Assembly: GCA_029237685.1 (NCBI GenBank)
Contig: JAQZBV010000005.1
Location: 1 to 61,271, forward strand
Direction: 5' to 3'
Origin: Cytophagaceae bacterium
GTDB taxonomy: Bacteria; Bacteroidota; Bacteroidia; Cytophagales; Cytophagaceae
DNA length: 61,271 nt
Shown: piece after piece, positions 43,110 to 57,704 of the stretch
Layout of the letters: every line of letters starts with the position of its first letter
How positions within the stretch are numbered: the first letter of the stretch is position 1
The notes under the pieces: model-generated
What the model was told of the DNA's origin: nothing
What the model saw: only the letters and a program-made list of their open reading frames with translations
The model's database searches: none
Made by a program: the position numbers and the translations under genes

Positions 43110-46100
43110 TTATTGTATTTTCACAATTTTTCGTGAAACAGTACCTTGGGCCGTGTTGCATTTTACAACATACATACCCGGTGTTAAAGAGGCCGCATCA
43201 ATAGTAAACTGATGTGTACCTTCGTTTAATGTTCCTTCCAGCACTGTATTTACTAGTTGTCCTGTTTTATCAAACAGTTGAATGCTCACGTTTCCGGCTT
43301 CGGCAAGTGTCACTTGCAAAACGGTTGAAGCATCGAAAGGATTTGGTGAATTGCTTAACAATTGATCGTTTGCTTGAGCTTCTGATGCACCGACACGTGC
43401 GCTACAAGAACCAATCAATGTCCAGGCATCTGTCCAGTAAGCACCGGTACCAGGAGCATAAGCCCATGCCGAGCCGTTGCACCAGCCTGAGAATGGCCAA
43501 GGTTTACACTGGTATCTGCTGCCGGCATTCTTTGTGATAGAACCCGCTACGTAACCGCTGTTCTCTACATAACTCGCAATACCAGCACAACCATCCGTAG
43601 TTACTGTATTTACCTTTACCGTAATGGCAGAGGAAGTAGCAATTGCACCAGCGTTATCCGTTGCTCTAGCAGTGATGGTATAAGTACCGGCCGCTACACC
43701 TGTCCACATATAGCTGTATGGAGCAGAAGCATCGCTGCCTAAGAAACTTGAACCATTGTAAAAATCTACTTTAGAAACTGAACCATCAGCATCGGCAGCA
43801 TTTGCTGTGAATGTAATGCTGGCCGGCGCATTGTAATTCGTGTTATTTGCCGGGCCAGTTAAACTCACTGTTGGCAATTGATTATTCGGAGCATTTACTG
43901 TTACTGTAACCGCAGCTGAAGTCGTCGCAGCACCTCCGTTGTCCGTTGCTTTAGCCGTAATGACATAAGAACCGGCGCTGACATTAGTCCATACAAAAGA
44001 ATAAGGAGAACTGTTATCAGAATTTAATAATGTACTTCCATTATAAAACTCCACTTTAGAAACCGTTCCGTCAGTATCTGCTGCATTCGCAGAAATCGTA
44101 ATGCTAGCAGGAGCAGTGGAAGAAGAATTGTTTGACGGTGAAGTAAGATTGATTGTTGGCGCCTGATTGTTAGGAGCATTTACAGTCACTGTTACCGCAG
44201 CTGAAGTAGTCACAGCACCCGCATTGTCCGTTGCTTTGGCAGTGATGACATAAGAACCGGCACTCACATTGTTCCAAGCAAATGAATACGGTGAAGCATT
44301 GTCTGTATTCAATAAGGTGCTGCCGTTATAAAACTCTACTTTAGAAACTGTACCGTCGGCATCTGCTGCATTCGCAGAAAGGGTAAGGTTTGCAGGTGCA
44401 GTAAATGAGCTATTGTTAGCCGGTGAAGTAAGATTAATTGTTGGTGCCTGGTTTGGATTGCTTGCAGCAGCAAACAGCAAGTGATCCAGGTTGAAGTCAC
44501 CTGCTATCGCAAAAACACGAAGGATTTTTTGTCCACCTGTTACTGTCACATTATTAACAGATACAGTCTGCCAGTTTTGCCATCCGCCTGTATTAGGCAC
44601 TGTAAATGTGGCAATGGTAGCACCATCTAATTCAACGCGGAATGTTTTACCTGCAGTAGTAGCTGCTACTCGTGCGTCTATTTTATAAGTACCGGCTGTA
44701 ACATTCACAGAGTATTCTAGCCACTCATTTGTTACGATCCAACCTACATTGAATCCGCCACCTGATATCGCTTCGATGTCTACTGCTTCCGTTGTTCTGA
44801 AAGCACCGCCTTCGTTTGCTGTCGTCACATCGTTAAACGCGATACCTTGTCCACCGAGGTCATATTGTTCTGCCTGTAAAGTTCCAGGGATCGTTGCTCT
44901 TACTCCTCCATAAGGACTTTGAGTAAGCGGTGCGTTCGTTACCGTTACAGATACCGCATTCGACGTTGTAGAGGCATTGGCATTGTCTGTTGCTTTCGCT
45001 GTAATGCTGTAAGTGCCTACACCTACATTTGTCCAATTGAATGTATAAGGTGCAGCGTTATCGGTGTTTAGTAAAGTGGTTCCATTATAAAACTCCACTT
45101 TAGCAATAGAGCCGTCAGCATCCGCTGCATTCGCAGAGATGGTAATGCTTGCAGGTGCTGTGAAAGAAGCGTTGTTAGACGGAGCCGTTAAGCTTACAGT
45201 AGGAAGCTGATTGGTTGTTCCGCCCGGGAAATCATCCGCAGGACTCAACATTTTATCTCTCACCCATAAACCGGCTTCTTTTAATCTCGCTGGAGTCCAA
45301 GGTCCATTGGAACAGGTTCCGGAAGTCCATACAGCACCTGTTCTATTGTCGTCTGAATAGTTCCAGTTACACCAGCTGATTTTTTTTGTGCGCATCAAGT
45401 CAATGTATCGTTGCGACATGGTGAAGTTATTTGCACCGTCGCCTGATGCTGTTTGCGTACCGAATTCTGTAACGAATACAGGCAGACGATCAGAAGCCCA
45501 GTTCAACTCATTGTAATATTGATCACCATGAGAAGCGGCATAAAAGTGAAACGTATACATGATGTTTGTAGCGTTCACAGGAGCATTTACAATGTCTTGT
45601 GCGGTTCTTCCGTCTGAGATCCCCATAGATCCCCAACCGTGTGTACCTACTAAAATAGGAGCATCACCATCGATGGCACGAATCACAGGAATGATCTGAT
45701 CTGCATATGTTTTGATTCGAGACCAGGCTACACCATTTGGTTCGTTGCAAATATCATATAGAATATTGTTTTTGTTTTTATGGGTGTTCGCGATAGACGT
45801 AAAGAAGTTCTTTGCGTTCTGCAAGTTCGCGTTTGGATCTCCTGGTGTCAACTGATGAAAATCCACCAAAGCATACATGCCTCTGGCAGTAGCTGCTTCA
45901 ATCAGGGTGTTTACCTGGTTGGTAAATGCGGTAGGATTGGTTTCATATCCACCTTCCTGCACATACATGGAAATTCTCAGGATATCACCTCCCCAGTCAT
46001 TGGCTAAGGCGTCCAACGAAGCATTCGTTAGACAATCTCCCCAACCGTACCACTGAATACCGTGTGTACTCATTCCCCGAAGCTGAATGGGATTGTTGTA

Positions 46101-46241
46101 CTGATTGCATAATTTAAGGCCAATTACTTTTAACTGACCATTTTTAGAAACCGGGGTTTGTGCTGCTGCTGAACCGATGGTCAGGAACAGAGCAAAAATA
46201 ACCCCCAGCATCCTCAATGAAAATAGGTTTTTGTTTGTCAT
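43110..46241 (-). CDS. Multidomain GH5 endoglucanase with CBM6 and CBM5/12-like modules, T9SS-secreted
   Basis: 1043 residues. Signal peptide 1-28 (SAAAQ). GH5 catalytic domain of the Bacillus Cel5A-like (GH5_2) type at about 35-335: RGMSTHGIQWYGWG, acid/base E167 in CNEPNG, nucleophile E259 in VFVTEFG. Then Big_7 (342-434), CBM6 (442-591, LQAEQYDLGGQG ... NEWLEYSVNV), three more Big_7 domains (596-689, 690-784, 787-876), a CBM5/12-like module (884-945, YQCKPWPFSGWCNGSAWAY) and a type A sorting domain (950-1043). Beta-1,4-glucan is the likely substrate. The last two modules match those of the beta-helix protein at 10627, pointing to domain shuffling. Confidence 0.92.
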   Translation of the reverse strand: MTNKNLFSLRMLGVIFALFLTIGSAAAQTPVSKNGQLKVIGLKLCNQYNNPIQLRGMSTHGIQWYGWGDCLTNASLDALANDWGGDILRISMYVQEGGYETNPTAFTNQVNTLIEAATARGMYALVDFHQLTPGDPNANLQNAKNFFTSIANTHKNKNNILYDICNEPNGVAWSRIKTYADQIIPVIRAIDGDAPILVGTHGWGSMGISDGRTAQDIVNAPVNATNIMYTFHFYAASHGDQYYNELNWASDRLPVFVTEFGTQTASGDGANNFTMSQRYIDLMRTKKISWCNWNYSDDNRTGAVWTSGTCSNGPWTPARLKEAGLWVRDKMLSPADDFPGGTTNQLPTVSLTAPSNNASFTAPASITISANAADADGSIAKVEFYNGTTLLNTDNAAPYTFNWTNVGVGTYSITAKATDNANASTTSNAVSVTVTNAPLTQSPYGGVRATIPGTLQAEQYDLGGQGIAFNDVTTANEGGAFRTTEAVDIEAISGGGFNVGWIVTNEWLEYSVNVTAGTYKIDARVAATTAGKTFRVELDGATIATFTVPNTGGWQNWQTVSVNNVTVTGGQKILRVFAIAGDFNLDHLLFAAASNPNQAPTINLTSPANNSSFTAPANLTLSANAADADGTVSKVEFYNGSTLLNTDNASPYSFAWNNVSAGSYVITAKATDNAGAVTTSAAVTVTVNAPNNQAPTINLTSPSNNSSSTAPASITISANAADTDGTVSKVEFYNGSTLLNSDNSSPYSFVWTNVSAGSYVITAKATDNGGAATTSAAVTVTVNAPNNQLPTVSLTGPANNTNYNAPASITFTANAADADGSVSKVDFYNGSSFLGSDASAPYSYMWTGVAAGTYTITARATDNAGAIATSSAITVKVNTVTTDGCAGIASYVENSGYVAGSITKNAGSRYQCKPWPFSGWCNGSAWAYAPGTGAYWTDAWTLIGSCSARVGASEAQANDQLLSNSPNPFDASTVLQVTLAEAGNVSIQLFDKTGQLVNTVLEGTLNEGTHQFTIDAASLTPGMYVVKCNTAQGTVSRKIVKIQ
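43888..44457. repeat. Two tandem 285-bp units encoding near-identical Ig-like domains
   Basis: Units 43888-44172 and 44173-44457 each encode 95 residues (one Big_7 domain) and share long identical DNA stretches, for example GAGCATTTAC at the start and AACTCCACTTTAGAAAC-like stretches inside. This points to recent duplication or ongoing gene conversion within the GH5 gene. Confidence 0.75.
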
Positions 46242-48342: not shown

Positions 48343-48366
48343 CTGGCGCGGATGTAAACCGGATCA
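48343..48366. repeat. Partial repeat-A arm at the 3' edge of the transposase gene
   Basis: CTGGCGCGGATGTAAACCGG followed by ATCA matches the left half of the A hairpin at 48978. Its last three bases (TCA) are the transposase stop codon on the minus strand, so the gene ends in the repeat. Copies therefore bracket the transposase. Confidence 0.65.
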
Positions 48367-48918
48367 ATATAAAAAAGTTATCGGTAATAGTCCCGGTCTA
48401 TTGTCTTCATAATCTCCTGCACTGCTATATCGGTAGTCCGAGGGCTCAAGAACAATTCCACTCGCTACAGGATTCCGATGTATGTAATTTAACTTTTGCA
48501 TCGCCATGTCATGTGAAAACAAAACCACCGGATGATACTCATTTTGCCAAAACATATGTTTCATGTGTTTGCCACTTTTGTAGCCATATTCTAAAAACAC
48601 TCTCAGCATCCAGTCTCTCCTACTTTCTCTGTTGTTCTCCGCTATTGCCTTCACAATTTGCTTGGAAGTATACTTCTTTAAATCACGAATAATATCTGGT
48701 ATCTCACAAGCACTATTTCTACCAACAATCAAGTGAACATGGTTACTCATAATACACCAGGCATAGACTTCCAATCCCTTTTCCGTTTGACAAAATCTTA
48801 TACTTTCTAAAAGTATATCTACATAACAACGCCTCGAAAAGACATCGACCCACCCCACAACAGCAAACGTAATAAAATAAAGACCATCAGGATTCTTTAC
48901 TTTGTACTTCTCACTCAT
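48364..48918 (-). CDS. REP-associated tyrosine transposase (RAYT)
   Basis: 184 residues, Y1 transposase family (IS200/IS605-like). The HUH metal site is H60-V-H62 in MSNHVHLIVGR. The catalytic Tyr145 is in QKLNYIHRNPV. A basic helical middle and WQNEYHP complete the RAYT pattern. RAYTs nick and join single-stranded DNA at palindromic REP elements and are domesticated, usually single-copy genes rather than full insertion sequences. The gene is bracketed by palindromic repeats: a partial copy at its stop and a 450-base array upstream of its start (48978-49426). No inverted ends or second ORF of a true IS are visible. Confidence 0.88.
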   Translation of the reverse strand: MSEKYKVKNPDGLYFITFAVVGWVDVFSRRCYVDILLESIRFCQTEKGLEVYAWCIMSNHVHLIVGRNSACEIPDIIRDLKKYTSKQIVKAIAENNRESRRDWMLRVFLEYGYKSGKHMKHMFWQNEYHPVVLFSHDMAMQKLNYIHRNPVASGIVLEPSDYRYSSAGDYEDNRPGLLPITFLY

Positions 48919-48977
48919 ATAAAAAATAGTTTAAAAAATTAACTCCTTACTAAAACAACAAAGTCCTTACTAACACC

Positions 48978-49426
48978 CTGGCGCGGATGTTCCACCTTTT
49001 CGACGGATCATCCGCGCCTTAATTAAAAAAACAAATTAGTACTCAGAAGACCTTCGGGATCTGTGATCCCGACATCGGAACTATACTAAGCTTTCTTATT
49101 TTCTAGTTTAAAAAACGGTTTGGTATGGATCACAGATCCATATTGACTTCTGTACTTCTATCTTTGTTTTTATATTAAAGGCACGGATGTTCCGAAGGAT
49201 CATCCGTGCCCTAAATTATAAAGAAAACAAATCTCCAAAGACAATTGGGATCTGAGATCCCAACATCGCAGCAATAATATGCCCTTTCATTTCTAGTTTA
49301 AAAAAAAATTTCTGGTATGGATCACAGATCCATATACACTTCGGTACAGCTATCTATTTTCTATTAAAAGCCACGGATGATCCTGCGCAACATCCGCGCT
49401 AATTGGGGCTAGTTGGGATCTAAAAT
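48978..49426. repeat. Composite palindromic array (BIME-like), period about 200 bp
   Basis: Three palindromes recur in the order A-B-C-A-B-C-A-B. A: GGCGCGGATG...CATCCGCGCC (48980-49018), GGCACGGATG...CATCCGTGCC (49180-49210), degraded at 49370-49399. B: CGGGATCTGTGATCCCG (49055-49071), TTGGGATCTGAGATCCCAA (49245-49263), half at 49413. C: TATGGATCACAGATCCATA (49124-49142 and 49316-49334, identical). The B core GATCTGTGATC is the reverse complement of the C core GATCACAGATC, so B and C are inverted copies of one element, as in bacterial BIMEs. Stem changes in A and B are compensatory. Confidence 0.85.
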
Positions 49427-49445: not shown

Positions 49446-50012
49446 TTACTCCGAAAAAAATTCATTGCCAAAAACAATTATACAAATTATTAGTATAAAA
49501 AACACAGCGATCGTCACTACAATTTCAAACTTGAAAAAGGGTTTGATGTCCGTATAAGGAGCGGTGATCAATTCTAGTTTTTTCACTAATAGATCTACGG
49601 CTTCCGCATCTTCCTTTCTGAAATAATACATCTGCGTGGGATACGTATCCAATTGCGCACCGACATGTTTGTCTTCTCTGTGAAAGACAATCTCCTGTTC
49701 CCCCAGTTGACCTTCAAAGCGTGGGATATCAAAAATTCTAATGCTGAAGGAAACACCCGTCTCTCTCCACTCCACAAGGTCTTTGTAATACTTGGCTTTC
49801 TCTACCACCTGCTCAAACTCTTGCTGCTCTTGTATGTCTTGTGCTGCAGCCTGCTTCTGAAGTAAAGCATTCAGCTCGTCTTCTAAGCCACGCTCCTTCA
49901 CTATAGCACGTGCCGCTTCTATGGCCTGAGGTTGGTAGTCCTTAGGGTTTAGGATGATGCTGAAGAGTTTTTCGTTGGAGAAAGAGGAGAAGTGGGTTTG
50001 GAAATCTGTCAT
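49446..50012 (-). CDS. Hypothetical protein with C-terminal membrane helix
   Basis: 188 residues. The N-terminal half is helical and charged (KDYQPQAIEAARAIVKERGL; LQKQAAAQDIQEQQEFEQVV). The middle is beta-rich (ETGVSFSIRIFDIPRFEGQL). One membrane helix is near the C-terminus (EIVVTIAVFFILIICIIVFG). The family is not recognised. It follows the nuclease-helicase gene by 15 bases, so the two are likely co-transcribed. Confidence 0.65.
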   Translation of the reverse strand: MTDFQTHFSSFSNEKLFSIILNPKDYQPQAIEAARAIVKERGLEDELNALLQKQAAAQDIQEQQEFEQVVEKAKYYKDLVEWRETGVSFSIRIFDIPRFEGQLGEQEIVFHREDKHVGAQLDTYPTQMYYFRKEDAEAVDLLVKKLELITAPYTDIKPFFKFEIVVTIAVFFILIICIIVFGNEFFSE

Positions 50013-52082: not shown

Positions 52083-52970
52083 TTACCCATTCAACGCTTC
52101 CGCACCACCCACGATCTCGAGGATCTCTTTGGTAATGGCCGCTTGACGAGAACGGTTGTATTCCAGCTTCAAGGCTTTCAACAATTCTTTCGCGTTGTCT
52201 GTTGCTTTGTCCATGGCCGTCATACGAGCACCATTTTCAGAAGCGTAAGACTCCAGCAAGTATTTGTAAAATTTGATTTTCAATGATTTTGGAATCAACT
52301 CTTCCACGATCTCTTCTTTCGATGGTTCGAAAATGTAATCGGTAGAAGTGGTTGATGTCGCTGAGGCTGCAGGAGCAACGATCGGCAGGAATTGTTCCGT
52401 GCGAATGATTTGAGTCGCTACGTTTTTGAATTCGTTGTATACCACCACTACTTTATCGTAGTAACCGGTTACGTAACGGTCCATGATCCACTCTGCTGCA
52501 GGACGAGCCGCATCGAATGACAGGTTACCGAAAACAAAGGCGTGATCGCCGTTCAATGCCGTCACGTCTTTACGTCTTTGCAAGGTTTCAAATCCTTTCT
52601 TACCCAAAGCCATGTATTCTACATTGCCCATGGCAAATGCCGGGCTGTAGTTGGCTTGGATGAAGGTATTGATTCCTTTAAGGACGTTCGCGTTGAAAGC
52701 ACCTGCCAAACCTCTGTCTGAAGTGATGGCCACGATCAATACTCTTTTTATTTCTCTCTCTGAAGCATAGATGTTATCGCTCGCGTCTTCCAAAGAAGCC
52801 GACAAGTTAGACAGGATTCCGTCTAACTTATCCGCGTAAGGTCTGATACGAGTGATGTTATCCTGCGCTCTTCTCAACTTCGCAGCGGCCACCATTTTCA
52901 TGGCTTTCGTGATCTGTTGCGTAGAGTTTACAGATACAATTCTATTTCTTACTTCTTTTAAATTAGCCAT
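52083..52970 (-). CDS. atpG: F1Fo ATP synthase subunit gamma
   Basis: 295 residues, the rotating central stalk. The N-terminal helix is typical (LKEVRNRIVSVNSTQQITKA, then MKMVAAAKLRRAQ), and the C-terminal helix matches (SRQAAITKEILEIVGGAEAL). A middle insertion rich in Ala/Ser/Thr (about 195-215, APAASATSTTSTDYIF) lengthens it relative to the E. coli protein. It is the last gene of the operon. atpD and atpC do not follow, as is usual in Bacteroidota, where they sit elsewhere. Confidence 0.95.
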   Translation of the reverse strand: MANLKEVRNRIVSVNSTQQITKAMKMVAAAKLRRAQDNITRIRPYADKLDGILSNLSASLEDASDNIYASEREIKRVLIVAITSDRGLAGAFNANVLKGINTFIQANYSPAFAMGNVEYMALGKKGFETLQRRKDVTALNGDHAFVFGNLSFDAARPAAEWIMDRYVTGYYDKVVVVYNEFKNVATQIIRTEQFLPIVAPAASATSTTSTDYIFEPSKEEIVEELIPKSLKIKFYKYLLESYASENGARMTAMDKATDNAKELLKALKLEYNRSRQAAITKEILEIVGGAEALNG

Positions 52971-52978
52971 AGAACTAA

Positions 52979-54553
52979 TTAGTATTTTTTAGCCAAATCA
53001 GCGGCAACAGATTTTAATTTACCAGTAACAGTGTCGTCCAATTTACCTGCTCTCAAATCAGCCAACACATCTTTGTGAGTAGCTCTTAGGTAAGCAAGGT
53101 ATTCTTTTTCGAACTCACGTACTTTTTCAACCGGTACGTTATCCAGTCCACCGACAGTAGACACGTAGATGATCGCTACTTGTTCTTCTACAGTTACCGG
53201 AGCATTTACCGGTTGTTTCAGAATTTCCAAGTTTTTACGTCCACGCTCGATGGTCAATTTAGTAGAAGCATCCAGGTCAGAACCGAATTTAGCAAACGCT
53301 TCCAATTCTCTGAATTGCGCCTGATCCAATTTCAAGGTACCAGCCACTTTCTTCATCGATTTGATTTGCGCGTTACCACCTACACGAGATACTGAGATAC
53401 CTACGTTGATCGCCGGACGCACACCTGAGTTGAACAAGTTTGTTTCCAAGAAGATCTGACCATCCGTAATAGAGATTACGTTGGTAGGGATATAAGCAGA
53501 AACGTCACCTGCTTGTGTTTCGATGATCGGAAGAGCTGTCAATGAACCGCCGCCTTTTACGATGCCTTTGATAGAATCAGGCAAATCGTTCATGTTTCTA
53601 GCGATTTCATCAGACTTGTTGATTTTCGCGGCACGCTCTAGTAAACGGCTGTGCAAGTAGAATACGTCACCTGGGTATGCTTCACGTCCCGGAGGTCTTC
53701 TCAACAAAAGAGACACTTCACGGTAAGCTACTGCTTGCTTAGACAAATCATCGTAAACAATCAAAGCCGGACGACCTGAGTCACGGAAGAATTCACCGAT
53801 GGCCGCACCAGTAAACGGAGCGTAGAATTGCATCGGAGCAGGATCAGAAGCAGCGGCAGAAACCACTACTGTATAAGGCATAGCACCTGCTTTTTCAAGC
53901 ATGTTTACCACACCGGCTACTGTACTTGCTTTTTGACCGATGGCCACATAGATGCAATATACAGGTTCGCCTTTGTCATAAAATTCTTTTTGGTTGATGA
54001 TCGCATCGATCGCCACTGTTGATTTACCAGTTTGACGGTCACCGATGATCAACTCACGCTGACCACGACCGATTGGAATCATCGAGTCAATCGCTTTGAT
54101 ACCCGTTTGTAACGGTTCGTTTACCGGCTGACGGAAGATTACTCCGGGAGCTTTTCTTTCCAATGGCATTTCGTAAAGAGTGCCAGTGATAGGACCTTTA
54201 CCGTCGATCGGGTTACCCAATGTATCAACGACACGGCCTAGCAAACCGTCACCAGCTTTTACGTAAGCGATTTGGTTGGTTCTTCTCACCGTATCACCTT
54301 CTTTGATACCTGCAGAATCACCCAACAATACCGCACCTACGTTATCTTCTTCGAGGTTCAATACCAATGCTCTCAATCCGTTTTCGAATTCAAGCAATTC
54401 ACCTGACTGCGCTTTAGAAAGGCCGTAGATACGAGCCACACCGTCACCGATTTGGAGTACAGTACCTACTTCTTCAAGTTCAGCTTCAGTTTTAAAGTTG
54501 GAGAGTTGCTGTCTAAGGATCGCAGAAACTTCATCCGGTCTAACGTCTACCAT
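52979..54553 (-). CDS. atpA: F1Fo ATP synthase subunit alpha
   Basis: 524 residues. Non-catalytic nucleotide-binding subunit of the F1 head. Walker A is GDRQTGKS at 171-178; the Walker B region is [17 protein letters not shown], and the family segment [20 protein letters not shown] is complete. It starts two bases after the atpH stop and ends eight bases before atpG. Length and motifs are standard. Confidence 0.97.
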
Positions 54554-54555
54554 GA

Positions 54556-55113
54556 TTATATTTTAGGAGTATATGTGTTATCGTTTAATTTACTTTTCAA
54601 GCGAGTCAATTTGTTTTGAATCGACTCATCGATCATTCTGTCTTCGATTTTCAGGATGTAGCCACCCAGGATAGAAGGTTTTACTTTTTCAATCAACTCT
54701 ACTTTTCTGCCGGTCTTTTGGATCACCAGGTTTATGAATTGTTTGCGTTGATCGTCCTGCAAAGGATAAGCTGTCGTTACTTCTGCCAGATCAATGCCTT
54801 TGTTGGTACGGTACTGTGAAGCGAACTCCTTTGCCATAGACACCAGGTAGCCTTCTCTTTGTTTATCTGTGATCAACACGAACATCGACAAGGTAAGGTC
54901 ACTTACTTTACCGGTGAACAATTGCTTCAGGATTTCTTTTTTCTTAGGGTGTGGAATGATGGGATTGCTCATTACACGCACGAACTCAGGACTTGCATCG
55001 CATACCGCAAGGAAATAAGTCATGTCTTTCTCTACCTGATCCAATACGTTTCTTTCGATTGCCAATTCAATCAAAGACTTCGCATACCTGGATCCTACTC
55101 TTGCTTCATTCAT
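54556..55113 (-). CDS. atpH: F1Fo ATP synthase subunit delta
   Basis: 185 residues. Peripheral stalk protein linking F1 to subunit b. The N-terminus ([20 protein letters not shown]) and the C-terminal signature ([20 protein letters not shown]) fit the family. It lies 15 bases after atpF and two before atpA, within the operon. Sequence conservation is low, as usual for delta. Confidence 0.93.
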
Positions 55114-55128
55114 CGGAGTCTGTAGCGA

Positions 55129-55623
55129 TTAGTTAAGTGTTGATTCTTTCAGATATTCAGAAACCAATGCTTTCTGAGCATCCGTATCTTTCAATTCTTT
55201 TTTCAATATTTTTTCAGCGACTTCCAAAGCGATGCTTACCGCGTGGTTTTTCACTTCAGCCATGGCTGCGTTTTTCTCTGTTTCGATGCCTCTGCGTGCA
55301 TTTTCCAACAACATATTACCTTCTTTCAAAGCTTTGTCTTTCGCTTCGTTCAATAGGTTTGTCGCTACTGTTTGCGCGTCGCGTAGCATTTTATCTCTTT
55401 CCAATCTTGCTTCCTGAAGCAAGGCTTCGTTAGCCGCTTTCAAAGAAGCCATTTCAGCTTTTGCTTTTGCAGCCGATTCCAACGCTTCTGTAATGCTGTC
55501 TTCTCTTTCTTTCAAAGAGCTCATGATAGGACCCCAGGCAAATTTGCCAAGGATGAACAACAAAATACCGAAGGTGATGAATTGCCAGAAGAATAAACCA
55601 AAATCAGGTGTAACTAAACTCAT
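55129..55623 (-). CDS. atpF: F1Fo ATP synthase subunit b
   Basis: 164 residues: one N-terminal membrane helix (FGLFFWQFITFGILLFILGK) and a long charged Ala/Glu/Lys-rich helix (REDSITEALESAAKAKAEMA onward) forming the peripheral stalk. It is separated from atpE by a 114-base spacer containing a hairpin (55688-55714), the only large gap inside the operon. Confidence 0.95.
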   Translation of the reverse strand: MSLVTPDFGLFFWQFITFGILLFILGKFAWGPIMSSLKEREDSITEALESAAKAKAEMASLKAANEALLQEARLERDKMLRDAQTVATNLLNEAKDKALKEGNMLLENARRGIETEKNAAMAEVKNHAVSIALEVAEKILKKELKDTDAQKALVSEYLKESTLN

Positions 55624-55687
55624 AGTAGGAGTTGTTTTGTTTGAAAATAAATGAGGATTGTTTAATTCCGTTTAATTGTATCAATTA

Positions 55688-55714
55688 CCCCTGAAGGCCT
55701 AATGCCTATCAGGG
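55688..55714 (-). promoter_or_regulatory. Hairpin between atpE and atpF
   Basis: CCCTGA...TCAGGG with an inner GGC/GCC stem lies in the atpE-atpF spacer, just 3' of atpE on the mRNA. It has no T-run, so it is more likely an mRNA-stabilising or processing element than a terminator. Extra atpE message would suit the need for many c subunits per ring. Confidence 0.5.
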
Positions 55715-55737
55715 ATAATCAATGTTTTTGTTTGATA

Positions 55738-56013
<276 letters not shown>

Positions 56014-56040
56014 TTAATCTTTTTATGCTCGCACTAAATA

Positions 56041-57111
56041 CTAGTGAGCGGCTTCATGGCCCTGAGCGTGATCGTCATGGTGCTCGTGTTCAGCTACAGC
56101 AGACCCGAAGTACAATGCCGTAAGCAAAGTAAATACATAAGCCTGCAAGATCGCAACGAACAATTCCAATACACTAATGAATAAAGCGAACGGTATACCG
56201 AATGCCGACATGAACACAGTCTTGAAGATGAATATCAGACCGATGAAACTCAATACGATGATGTGACCCGCCGTGATGTTAGCAAACAATCGGATCATCA
56301 AAGAGAAAGGCTTTGTAAACATACCTACGATCTCCAATGGTAGGATGATGATACGCAACGGAAGCGGTACACCCGGTGTCCACAAGATGTGCGCCCAGTA
56401 AGATTTGTTGGCTTTGAAGGTTGTGATGATGAAAGTAGCCAAGGCTAAAAACATCGTGAAGGTAATGTTCCCTGAAACGTTAGCGCCTGAAGGCATAAGG
56501 CCTAACAAGTTATTGAACCAAATGAAAAAGAAAATAGTCAACAGATAAGGCATGAATGTAGCATACTGAGGACCGATCATTGGTTTCGCTACATCGTCTC
56601 TGATGTAAAGAATGATGGGCTCAAAGAAAGACTGCGCACCTGTAGGAGCAAGACCCTGACGCTTTTTGTAAGAGTTCGCTATGGTAAGTAACAAGACCAA
56701 CAACAACACCGCGCTCAGCATCATGGAAGCTACGTTTTTTGTGATCGACACATTATAGAAGTGTGCACTGTGGTCTGCTGCACCAGAAGCATCTACTGCT
56801 ACGATATGATGACCTTCCAATTTGTAGCCTTTGTAAGTAGCATGTCCGTGTTCAAATTTGGAAGAAGAAAATACGTCCAGCCCTTTTTGAGAAGAGTATA
56901 AAATAACAGGAAGTGGAATCGAATAAGAATGACCATCGATATCAAACAAATGCCAGTCTGGGGCATCTGCGATGTGGTCTTGAATCATTTTGCCTGGGTT
57001 AAAAGGCTCATCTGCTGCAGGAGCACTGTTAGCGAAAGCATTGCCATTATTGAACAAAACAACAAGTGCGAGAGACGCTGTTAGGAGGAATTTATGAAGG
57101 TTCGTTGCCAT
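56041..57111 (-). CDS. atpB: F1Fo ATP synthase subunit a
   Basis: 356 residues, longer than the usual 240-270. Residues 1-28 look like a signal peptide, and about 30-125 form an extracytoplasmic domain (FNPGKMIQDHIADAPDWHLF), an extension I believe is common in Bacteroidota. The membrane part has five or six helices with the essential Arg274 in MIRLFANITAGH. The C-terminal tail is His/Asp-rich (AEHEHHDDHAQGHEAAH), which could bind metal or be structural. Its start overlaps the upstream membrane gene by 20 bases. Confidence 0.94.
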   Translation of the reverse strand: MATNLHKFLLTASLALVVLFNNGNAFANSAPAADEPFNPGKMIQDHIADAPDWHLFDIDGHSYSIPLPVILYSSQKGLDVFSSSKFEHGHATYKGYKLEGHHIVAVDASGAADHSAHFYNVSITKNVASMMLSAVLLLVLLLTIANSYKKRQGLAPTGAQSFFEPIILYIRDDVAKPMIGPQYATFMPYLLTIFFFIWFNNLLGLMPSGANVSGNITFTMFLALATFIITTFKANKSYWAHILWTPGVPLPLRIIILPLEIVGMFTKPFSLMIRLFANITAGHIIVLSFIGLIFIFKTVFMSAFGIPFALFISVLELFVAILQAYVFTLLTALYFGSAVAEHEHHDDHAQGHEAAH

Positions 57112-57499
57112 TTTTCTCGGAATCGGGTCGCAAGTTAGTCAATAAGTAATAGATTTCAAATCCGGTATAAGCAAAATATGCTACAATAAAATTAATAACG
57201 AATACCTTTTGATTTTCAGATAGATACAATACAAAAACCAATAAAAAGAACATCGCTGCCAACATCCGAATTGTCATAGAACCCATGAAATACAAATGAA
57301 AGTCATTACGCTTAGATAACCCTTTGGAAGTAATCCAATGCCCAAGCAAAGCGATCGCCACGGAATAAGCCTGAATCCACCAGAAAAAGGAGGAAACATA
57401 CTCGGGTTTGCCCAATTTCACCAAAGCCAGTTGGGCCAGGTAAAACAAAGACAGGATCAGCAGGATCCCATAATAGAAATTATTTTTTGTTCTGGGCAT
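57092..57499 (-). CDS. Unknown membrane protein in the atp operon
   Basis: 135 residues with four predicted membrane helices (YGILLILSLFYLAQLALVKL; FWWIQAYSVAIALLGHWITS; SMTIRMLAAMFFLLVFVLYL; NFIVAYFAYTGFEIYYLLTN). It overlaps atpZ upstream and atpB downstream by 20 bases each. The place and topology recall AtpI, a c-ring assembly or cation-handling factor, but the sequence is too different for me to name it. Assembly of the Fo sector is the best inference. Confidence 0.7.
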   Translation of the reverse strand: MPRTKNNFYYGILLILSLFYLAQLALVKLGKPEYVSSFFWWIQAYSVAIALLGHWITSKGLSKRNDFHLYFMGSMTIRMLAAMFFLLVFVLYLSENQKVFVINFIVAYFAYTGFEIYYLLTNLRPDSEKNGNEPS

Positions 57500-57704
57500 T
57501 CATCAGGGATTTAATGAGGCGATACATACTGCCGATCACAGCAAATACCAGCAAGAAAATGGTAAAGAGGCCTTTTTCAACTCCATACTTAGCGTCAAGC
57601 CAGCGTCCAAGCCAAGCCGCAAGGCAAAGTATCACCACCAATTCAACTCCCAAACTGGAGTATTTCATGAGGCTGCTTGGCTGCTTGATTTTCTTATCGT
57701 CCAT
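57480..57704 (-). CDS. AtpZ/AtpI-family protein
   Basis: 74 residues with two membrane helices (LGVELVVILCLAAWLGRWLD; GLFTIFLLVFAVIGSMYRLI), matching the short AtpZ-type proteins found at the head of atp operons and linked to Fo assembly or magnesium supply. It is the first gene of the operon, with a strong -7 promoter element 20 bases upstream. Confidence 0.85.
   Translation of the reverse strand: MDDKKIKQPSSLMKYSSLGVELVVILCLAAWLGRWLDAKYGVEKGLFTIFLLVFAVIGSMYRLIKSLMNAQNKK

What the first reader, a model, noticed from the sequence alone, without database searches (positions are those of the whole stretch)
48343..49426. RAYT transposase bracketed by a three-part palindromic array
The RAYT (HUH H60/H62, Tyr145) has a partial repeat at its stop codon and, upstream, an A-B-C-A-B-C-A-B array with a period near 200 bases. 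B and C are inverted copies of one core (GATCTGTGATC/GATCACAGATC), like a BIME. A is a separate palindrome with compensatory stem changes. The tandem three-palindrome layout differs from the simple REP pairs described in enterobacteria and pseudomonads.
Basis: partly seen in the sequence, partly recalled or inferred. Interest (0 to 1): 0.78.

Follow-up and report, generated by a model that had tools for sequence, protein, structure and literature searches.

The report
Bacteroidota RAYT with double-hairpin REP units
A single-strand-DNA transposase gene in an uncultured Bacteroidota bacterium sits beside mirror-image repeats in which each half carries two hairpins; the same repeats recur elsewhere in this genome and its relatives, which makes it a distinctive variant of the known RAYT/REP system rather than a new kind of element.

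Summary
A RAYT (48364-48918, minus strand; H60, H62, Y145) is preceded by palindromes reading A-B-C-A-B-C-A-(half B), with a degraded A at its stop codon. All stems except A3 and the stop-codon copy fold well, and the stems covary.

On the RAYT strand the unit is a mirror, A-C-linker-B-A'. C and B are the inner hairpins of two inverted arms and A/A' the outer ones. Neighbouring units in the window share one A, which gives the apparent three-part period of ~190-200 bp. I found 22 arms in four congeneric genomes. They include both close RAYT orthologues and loci without a RAYT. Conservation starts at a CT just outside the A stem.

The protein fits the Bacteroidota RAYT subclass 2.6 (group 5), which the literature describes only as having 'atypical' hairpins. 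In 60 related loci with matched flanking hairpins, 36 outer feet carry CT-NN-YGC (2.1 expected), often after CCCC; polarity is CGC...GTG.

Best explanation: a REPtron with REPIN/MITE-like double-hairpin dimers acted on in trans by its RAYT. Tandem REPIN clusters beside RAYTs and double-palindrome ends are already described. This is a new variant of a known kind. Cleavage and mobility were not shown.

The parts
48364..48918 (-). RAYT / TnpA_REP, 184 aa, HUH H60-V-H62, Y145, WQ, YIHRNP
   Evidence: ORF; Pfam Y1_Tnp; NCBIfam REP_Tyr_transpos above cut-off; best fold match E. coli TnpA_REP 4er8
48343..48366 (-). degraded A' copy overlapping the RAYT stop codon (A4); CTGG foot kept, stem lost
   Evidence: no hairpin, z +0.40
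48927..48938 (-). RAYT leader motif TTTTTTAAACTA, also present in the linkers of both units
   Evidence: 10 copies in 4.02 Mb, 5 of them at RAYT leaders or units:
48978..49020 (.). A1 outer hairpin (A' of the RAYT-proximal unit), long loop, CT foot facing the RAYT
   Evidence: fold z -6.0; alignment
49054..49072 (.). B1 inner hairpin
   Evidence: fold z -3.8; covariation
49104..49115 (-). linker 1, TTTTTTAAACTA
49124..49142 (.). C1 inner hairpin (inverted counterpart of B1)
   Evidence: fold z -3.0
49180..49210 (.). A2 outer hairpin shared by the two units (no CT foot on either side)
   Evidence: fold z -6.7; flanks
49245..49263 (.). B2 inner hairpin
   Evidence: fold z -4.2
49294..49305 (-). 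linker 2, TTTTTTAAACTA
49316..49334 (.). C2 inner hairpin
   Evidence: fold z -3.2
49369..49402 (.). A3 outer hairpin, partly degraded
   Evidence: fold z -1.3; matches model R1 as arm 49311-49402
49413..49426 (.). half of a further B (TTGGGATCT...), end of the array

Best explanation
This is a REPtron: a RAYT of the Bacteroidota subclass 2.6 (Bertels group 5) with its cognate repeats. The repeat unit is a mirror-symmetric dimer of about 200 bp, A-C-linker-B-A', a REPIN/MITE-like element whose arms each carry two hairpins. The outer A is a long imperfect hairpin with a conserved central mismatch and a CT just outside its foot; C or B is a shorter inner hairpin. Inferred mechanism: when the DNA is single-stranded, the RAYT recognises the folded arm on one strand (polarity set by the CT foot, the foot wobble and the T-T mismatch), nicks near the CT, and Tyr145 handles strand transfer, so that units are copied or excised in trans. 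The gene-less unit most likely arose from the REPtron by loss of the gene between its ends, because sister RAYTs are bounded A-H2-gene-H2'-A' and the linkers keep the RAYT leader motif TTTTTTAAACTA. The array next to the gene then grew by tandem duplication. Shown: RAYT identity, unit structure, covariation, recurrence at unlinked loci and at orthologous RAYTs. Inferred: binding, nicking, movement, and the role of the inner hairpin.
For: RAYT: NCBIfam REP_Tyr_transpos 106 bits (cut-off 80); best structural match 4er8, E. coli TnpA_REP bound to a REP, E 2.6e-6; NHVH/WQ/YIHxNP, 83 residues from H62 to Y145 and a C-terminal SS, as described for subclass 2.6. Unit: the same A-C-B-A' at C76, G007:C128, G005:C260, G006:C134 and next to the 86% (G005) and 83% (G007) RAYT orthologues. 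Covariation. The matches strong enough to be clear (E 1e-12 or better) are confined to this genus. Sharp conservation boundary at CT (19 and 18 of 22) while bases further out vary. RAYT paralogues in the same genome have their own stems with the same A-H2...H2'-A' plan. In 60 Bacteroidota loci with a flanking hairpin repeated inverted on the other side, 36 outer feet carry CT-NN-YGC against 2.1 in shuffles, 1 reversed and 1 at the other foot; 34 have CGC...GTG polarity against 1 in reverse. TTTTTTAAACTA: 5 of 10 genome copies lie at RAYT leaders or units.
Against: No clean empty site was found: orthologous loci lacking the element also differ in gene content. Copy number is low (about 10 arms at 3 loci in this genome), unlike high-copy REPs. 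Several window copies are degraded, and A2 and A3 lack the CT foot. The window family lacks the CCCC box. Nicking, binding and strand choice are untested. The leader match is only 12 bases.
Confidence: 0.8

Rival explanations
1. Decayed relic: the RAYT is domesticated or inactive on these repeats, and the array is a fossil kept or expanded only by replication slippage and homologous recombination.
For: Low copy number, degraded A3, A4 and half-B. In G007:C151 a 129-bp tandem array repeats the RAYT 3' end plus H2'-A', which looks like plain tandem duplication. The C181 unit sits at an orthologous site in G000 and G007, so it is old.
Against: The RAYT frame and catalytic residues are intact and 83-86% identical between species. 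Stems are maintained by compensatory change. Units occur at several unlinked loci. The sister family on C192 has near-identical copies, implying recent spread.
Confidence: 0.2
2. The palindromes act mainly as RNA: terminators or mRNA-stability hairpins between the 188-aa gene and the RAYT, recruited for regulation rather than transposition.
For: They lie between co-directional genes. One terminator-like site falls in B2 (2 sites found in the region, 0.7 expected by shuffling). REPs are known to have such effects.
Against: Mirror units recur at unlinked places and beside RAYTs specifically. Feet carry a strand-polar tag. Most hairpins lack a T tract. No Rfam match. This does not exclude a secondary regulatory role.
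Confidence: 0.1
3. A true IS200/IS605-type insertion sequence with subterminal hairpins rather than a RAYT/REP system.
For: Shared Y1 HUH fold; sister copies have hairpins on both sides of the gene.
Against: Better match to the REP_Tyr_transpos model than to IS200, which stays below cut-off. The ends are inverted rather than in the same orientation. No near-identical multicopy gene: the closest paralogues are 42-44% identical. Gene-less repeats outnumber the gene.
Confidence: 0.05

Closest known systems
Subclass 2.6 TnpA_REP (Bertels group 5) of Bacteroidetes (Quentin et al. 2018, PMC6006769)
   Same: NHVH, WQ, YIHxNP motifs; HUH-to-Tyr distance about 82; C-terminal SS; gene flanked by secondary structures without GTAG, copies of which occur elsewhere in the genome
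   Different: The paper's main text gives no layout and no consensus for these structures. Here the two-hairpin mirror unit and a CT-NN-YGC...GTG foot are defined. Its supplementary table could not be read.
REPINs and tandem REPIN clusters of P. fluorescens SBW25 (Bertels and Rainey 2011, PMC3116915)
   Same: Inverted REP pair as the unit; gene-less units; ordered tandem clusters beside RAYTs; compensatory changes
   Different: Each arm here has two different hairpins rather than one REP; no GTAG; low copy number; adjacent units share an outer hairpin
TIRtrons and double-palindromic TIRs (Di Nocera et al. 2013, PMC3733652)
   Same: RAYT-like gene bounded by inverted ends, some made of two palindromes, with gene-less copies in dimers or clusters
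   Different: Their double TIRs in Pseudomonas join degenerate GTAG-1 REPs to other stem-loops; their shared GGGGWSAS box is not the tag found here; different RAYT group
E. coli REPtron and BIMEs, TnpA_REP 4er8 (Corneloup et al. 2021, PMC8266576)
   Same: Long imperfect hairpin with a mid-stem mismatch; strand-specific recognition expected; CT is the common cleavage dinucleotide there
   Different: GTAG guide replaced by CT-NN-YGC; different RAYT subclass

Membership tests
RAYT / TnpA_REP (Y1 HUH) | HUH motif and single catalytic Tyr in a Y1 transposase fold | tested here: met
   H60, H62, Y145; Y1_Tnp; fold match 4er8 and ISDra2 (model pLDDT 79.8)
RAYT / TnpA_REP (Y1 HUH) | Scores as REP-associated rather than IS200 transposase | tested here: met
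   REP_Tyr_transpos 106 bits (cut-off 80), IS200 29 bits (cut-off 55)
Subclass 2.6 / group 5 | NH[LIV]H, WQ, YIH[QN]NP, HUH-Y median 82, SS in tail, Bacteroidetes | tested here: met
   NHVH, WQ, YIHRNP (R in place of Q/N), 83 residues, SS; related loci essentially all Bacteroidota; no tree built with reference classes
REPtron | Gene flanked by REP-like palindromes repeated elsewhere in the genome | tested here: met
Canonical REP | 5' GT[AG]G tetranucleotide at the hairpin foot | tested here: not met
   Foot is CT-GGCGC in this family; CT-NN-YGC across relatives
REPIN (REP doublet forming a hairpin) | Inverted REP pair as the unit, found without the gene | tested here: met
   A-C-B-A' units; whole array folds with z -9.75
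REPIN (REP doublet forming a hairpin) | High copy number and evidence of excision or transposition | tested here: inconclusive
   About 10 arms at 3 loci in this draft genome; no clean empty site; no read data
IS200/IS605 insertion sequence | Subterminal hairpins in the same orientation at both ends; near-identical multicopy element | tested here: not met
   Ends inverted; paralogues only 42-44% identical
RAYT / TnpA_REP (Y1 HUH) | Binding and cleavage of cognate single-stranded REP | not testable with these tools
   needs purified protein

The most novel reading that the evidence does not exclude
The double-hairpin REP dimers of Bacteroidota RAYTs act as boundaries of exchangeable gene cassettes. 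Beside the paralogous RAYT on contig C192, REP hairpins occupy 12 of 18 gaps between mostly co-oriented genes over about 18 kb. The C76 and C181 loci gained or lost accessory genes next to units that orthologous sites share. RAYT-made nicks or recombination between units would then shuffle genes, a single-strand HUH analogue of an integron array.
Probability: 0.07. Interest if true: 0.88.

Novelty: new variant of a known kind. Interest (0 to 1): 0.5.

Why it matters
The Bacteroidota RAYT group is the one whose repeats were called atypical and left without a consensus in the main literature read here. A defined unit (mirror dimer with two hairpins per arm) and a strand-polar foot tag (often CCCC, then GCT-NN-YGC...GTG) give a concrete substrate to test: which hairpin is bound, where the nick falls, and whether CT replaces GTAG as guide or cut site. 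It also supports the idea that gene-less REP dimers descend from the ends of the RAYT element.

Tried and rejected
Tandem A-B-C triplet as the unit: rejected, because isolated copies are A-C-B-A'. Known structured RNA: no Rfam match in the window. High-copy REP family: not found; a covariance model over 19 family genomes gave strong matches only in this genus, and all were already known (the first look scored only 150 candidates per genome). Clean empty sites: sought at C181 (G006), C76 (G005) and the G007:C151 RAYT site (G006); all differed in neighbouring genes, so none is decisive. GGATGTTCC hits: 51 in the genome, most not A elements. Gene cassettes: array genes on C192 had almost no counterparts in the relatives' loci fetched, so exchange could not be tested; near-identical dimers there are also explained by local spread around the RAYT, as reported for Marinomonas REPtrons (PMC8266576).

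Full report
What is there. The window is contig C113 of a 4.02-Mb draft genome of 199 contigs. The ORF at 48364-48918 (minus) encodes a 184-aa protein that matches Pfam Y1_Tnp and the NCBIfam REP-associated tyrosine transposase model at 106 bits against a cut-off of 80; the IS200 model stays below its own cut-off. Its predicted fold (mean pLDDT 79.8) has E. coli TnpA_REP bound to a REP hairpin (4er8) as best match, ahead of ISDra2 transposase. H60, H62 and Y145 are at conserved columns. A C-terminal sorting-type domain in the neighbouring ORF at 43110-46241 and the related loci point to Bacteroidota.

The palindromes. Between the RAYT start and 49426 lie A1, B1, C1, A2, B2, C2, A3 and half a B; a degraded A overlaps the RAYT stop codon. 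A1 and A2 fold as long hairpins with a mid-stem mismatch, and the B and C copies as perfect 8-bp stems; A3 and the stop-codon copy have decayed. The whole array folds far better than shuffles, z -9.75.

The unit. Printing all copies in one orientation shows A-C-linker-B-A', with A and A' as inverted outer hairpins and C and B as inverted inner hairpins. Isolated units occur at contig C76 (two, plus a lone A'), and in related genomes at G007:C128, G005:C260 and G006:C134; the RAYT orthologues in G005 (86% identical) and G007 (83%) carry one or two units upstream. C181 carries a truncated A-B-C. In the window A2 serves both neighbouring units, which makes the string look like A-B-C-A-B-C. On 22 arms from four genomes the two stems keep 94.5% of pairs, with 25 cells changed on both sides against 8.8 in shuffles, 0 of 500 as high. 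A covariance model of the arm found strong matches (E 1e-12 or better) only in this genus, and only the arms already known.

Ends. Conservation across the 22 arms begins at a CT directly outside the A stem (C in 19, T in 18); bases further out are not conserved. This fits CT being a boundary or cut site; CT is the common cleavage dinucleotide of studied TnpA_REP enzymes (PMC8266576). That it is cut here is inference.

Relation to the gene. RAYT paralogues in the same genome (42-44% identical) are bounded A-H2-gene-H2'-A' (C66, C13, C80) or preceded by A-H2-H2'-A' (C192), with different stems. The 12-mer TTTTTTAAACTA just before the RAYT start also lies in both linkers of the window array; of ten copies in the genome, five are at RAYT leaders or units. 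The simplest reading is that units are REPtrons that lost their gene. In G007:C151 tandem copies contain the RAYT 3' end plus H2'-A', so local tandem duplication also occurs.

Across Bacteroidota. Of 80 named relatives, 74 had usable flanks; 60 have at least one upstream hairpin repeated inverted downstream, against 32 of 361 when flanks are swapped between loci. 23 have two or more, of which I judge by eye about a dozen to be two distinct hairpins per arm. At the outer foot of the outermost hairpin 36 of 60 carry CT-NN-YGC, against 2.1 in shuffles, 1 reversed and 1 at the other foot. 34 of 60 read CGC on the 5' side and GTG on the 3' side, against 1 in reverse. 16 of the 36 have CCCC just before, against 1.7% background. 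The window family keeps CT-NN-CGC but not CCCC. The motif was noticed in these same loci before it was counted, so it needs a fresh set.

Genome context. The window RAYT sits in an island next to a syntenic block (window 52086-57500) shared with G005, G007 and G006; G006 keeps only a remnant C-A' there. At C76 versus G005:C260, and at C181 versus G007:C128, units lie in corresponding intervals while accessory genes differ. No clean empty site was found, so movement is inferred from dispersal, not shown.

Comparison with known systems. Motifs, length and phylum fit subclass 2.6/group 5, for which the paper reports atypical structures lacking GT[AG]G, repeated elsewhere in the genome (PMC6006769). 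Tandem REPIN clusters beside RAYTs (PMC3116915) and double-palindrome TIRs (PMC3733652) are precedents. What is added is the mirror unit with two distinct covarying hairpins per arm, the shared-A array, and the foot tag. Verdict: new variant of a known kind.

Noticed in passing
G000 contig C192:1911-20299 (L283, L225): About a dozen near-identical A-H2-H2'-A' dimers of another RAYT family sit in 12 of 18 gaps between mostly co-oriented genes, ending at that RAYT (20299). Resembles a cassette array, or local REP spread around its RAYT.
   Followed up: partly
G000 contig C76:13160-15235 (L068) versus G005:C260:5464-5681 (L215): Where G005 has one unit, G000 has two units enclosing a methyltransferase-like gene, a lone A', a GNAT-like gene and a SnoaL-like gene (names by eye from the translations, no family search).
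   Followed up: partly
60 Bacteroidota RAYT loci among L098-L177: Shared foot tag CCCC...GCT-NN-YGC with CGC...GTG strand polarity at the outer hairpin.
   Followed up: partly
L169 (Cyclobacteriaceae bacterium YHN15), RAYT flanks: Larger tandem arrays with several palindromes per period of about 130 bp on both sides of the RAYT.
   Followed up: no
G000 contigs C39, C143, C33 (L017-L019): Three more RAYT-like genes, 26-30% identical to the window RAYT, flanked by quite different palindromes.
   Followed up: no
L299:10725-10760 and about 60 places in G000: Dispersed heptanucleotide tandem repeat (TTAGTTG)n, here directly upstream of a RAYT element.
   Followed up: no
window 49446-50012 and G006:C134:15964-16545: The 188-aa gene beside the window array has a 45% identical relative near a unit in G006; another gene there resembles a C192 array gene.
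   Followed up: no
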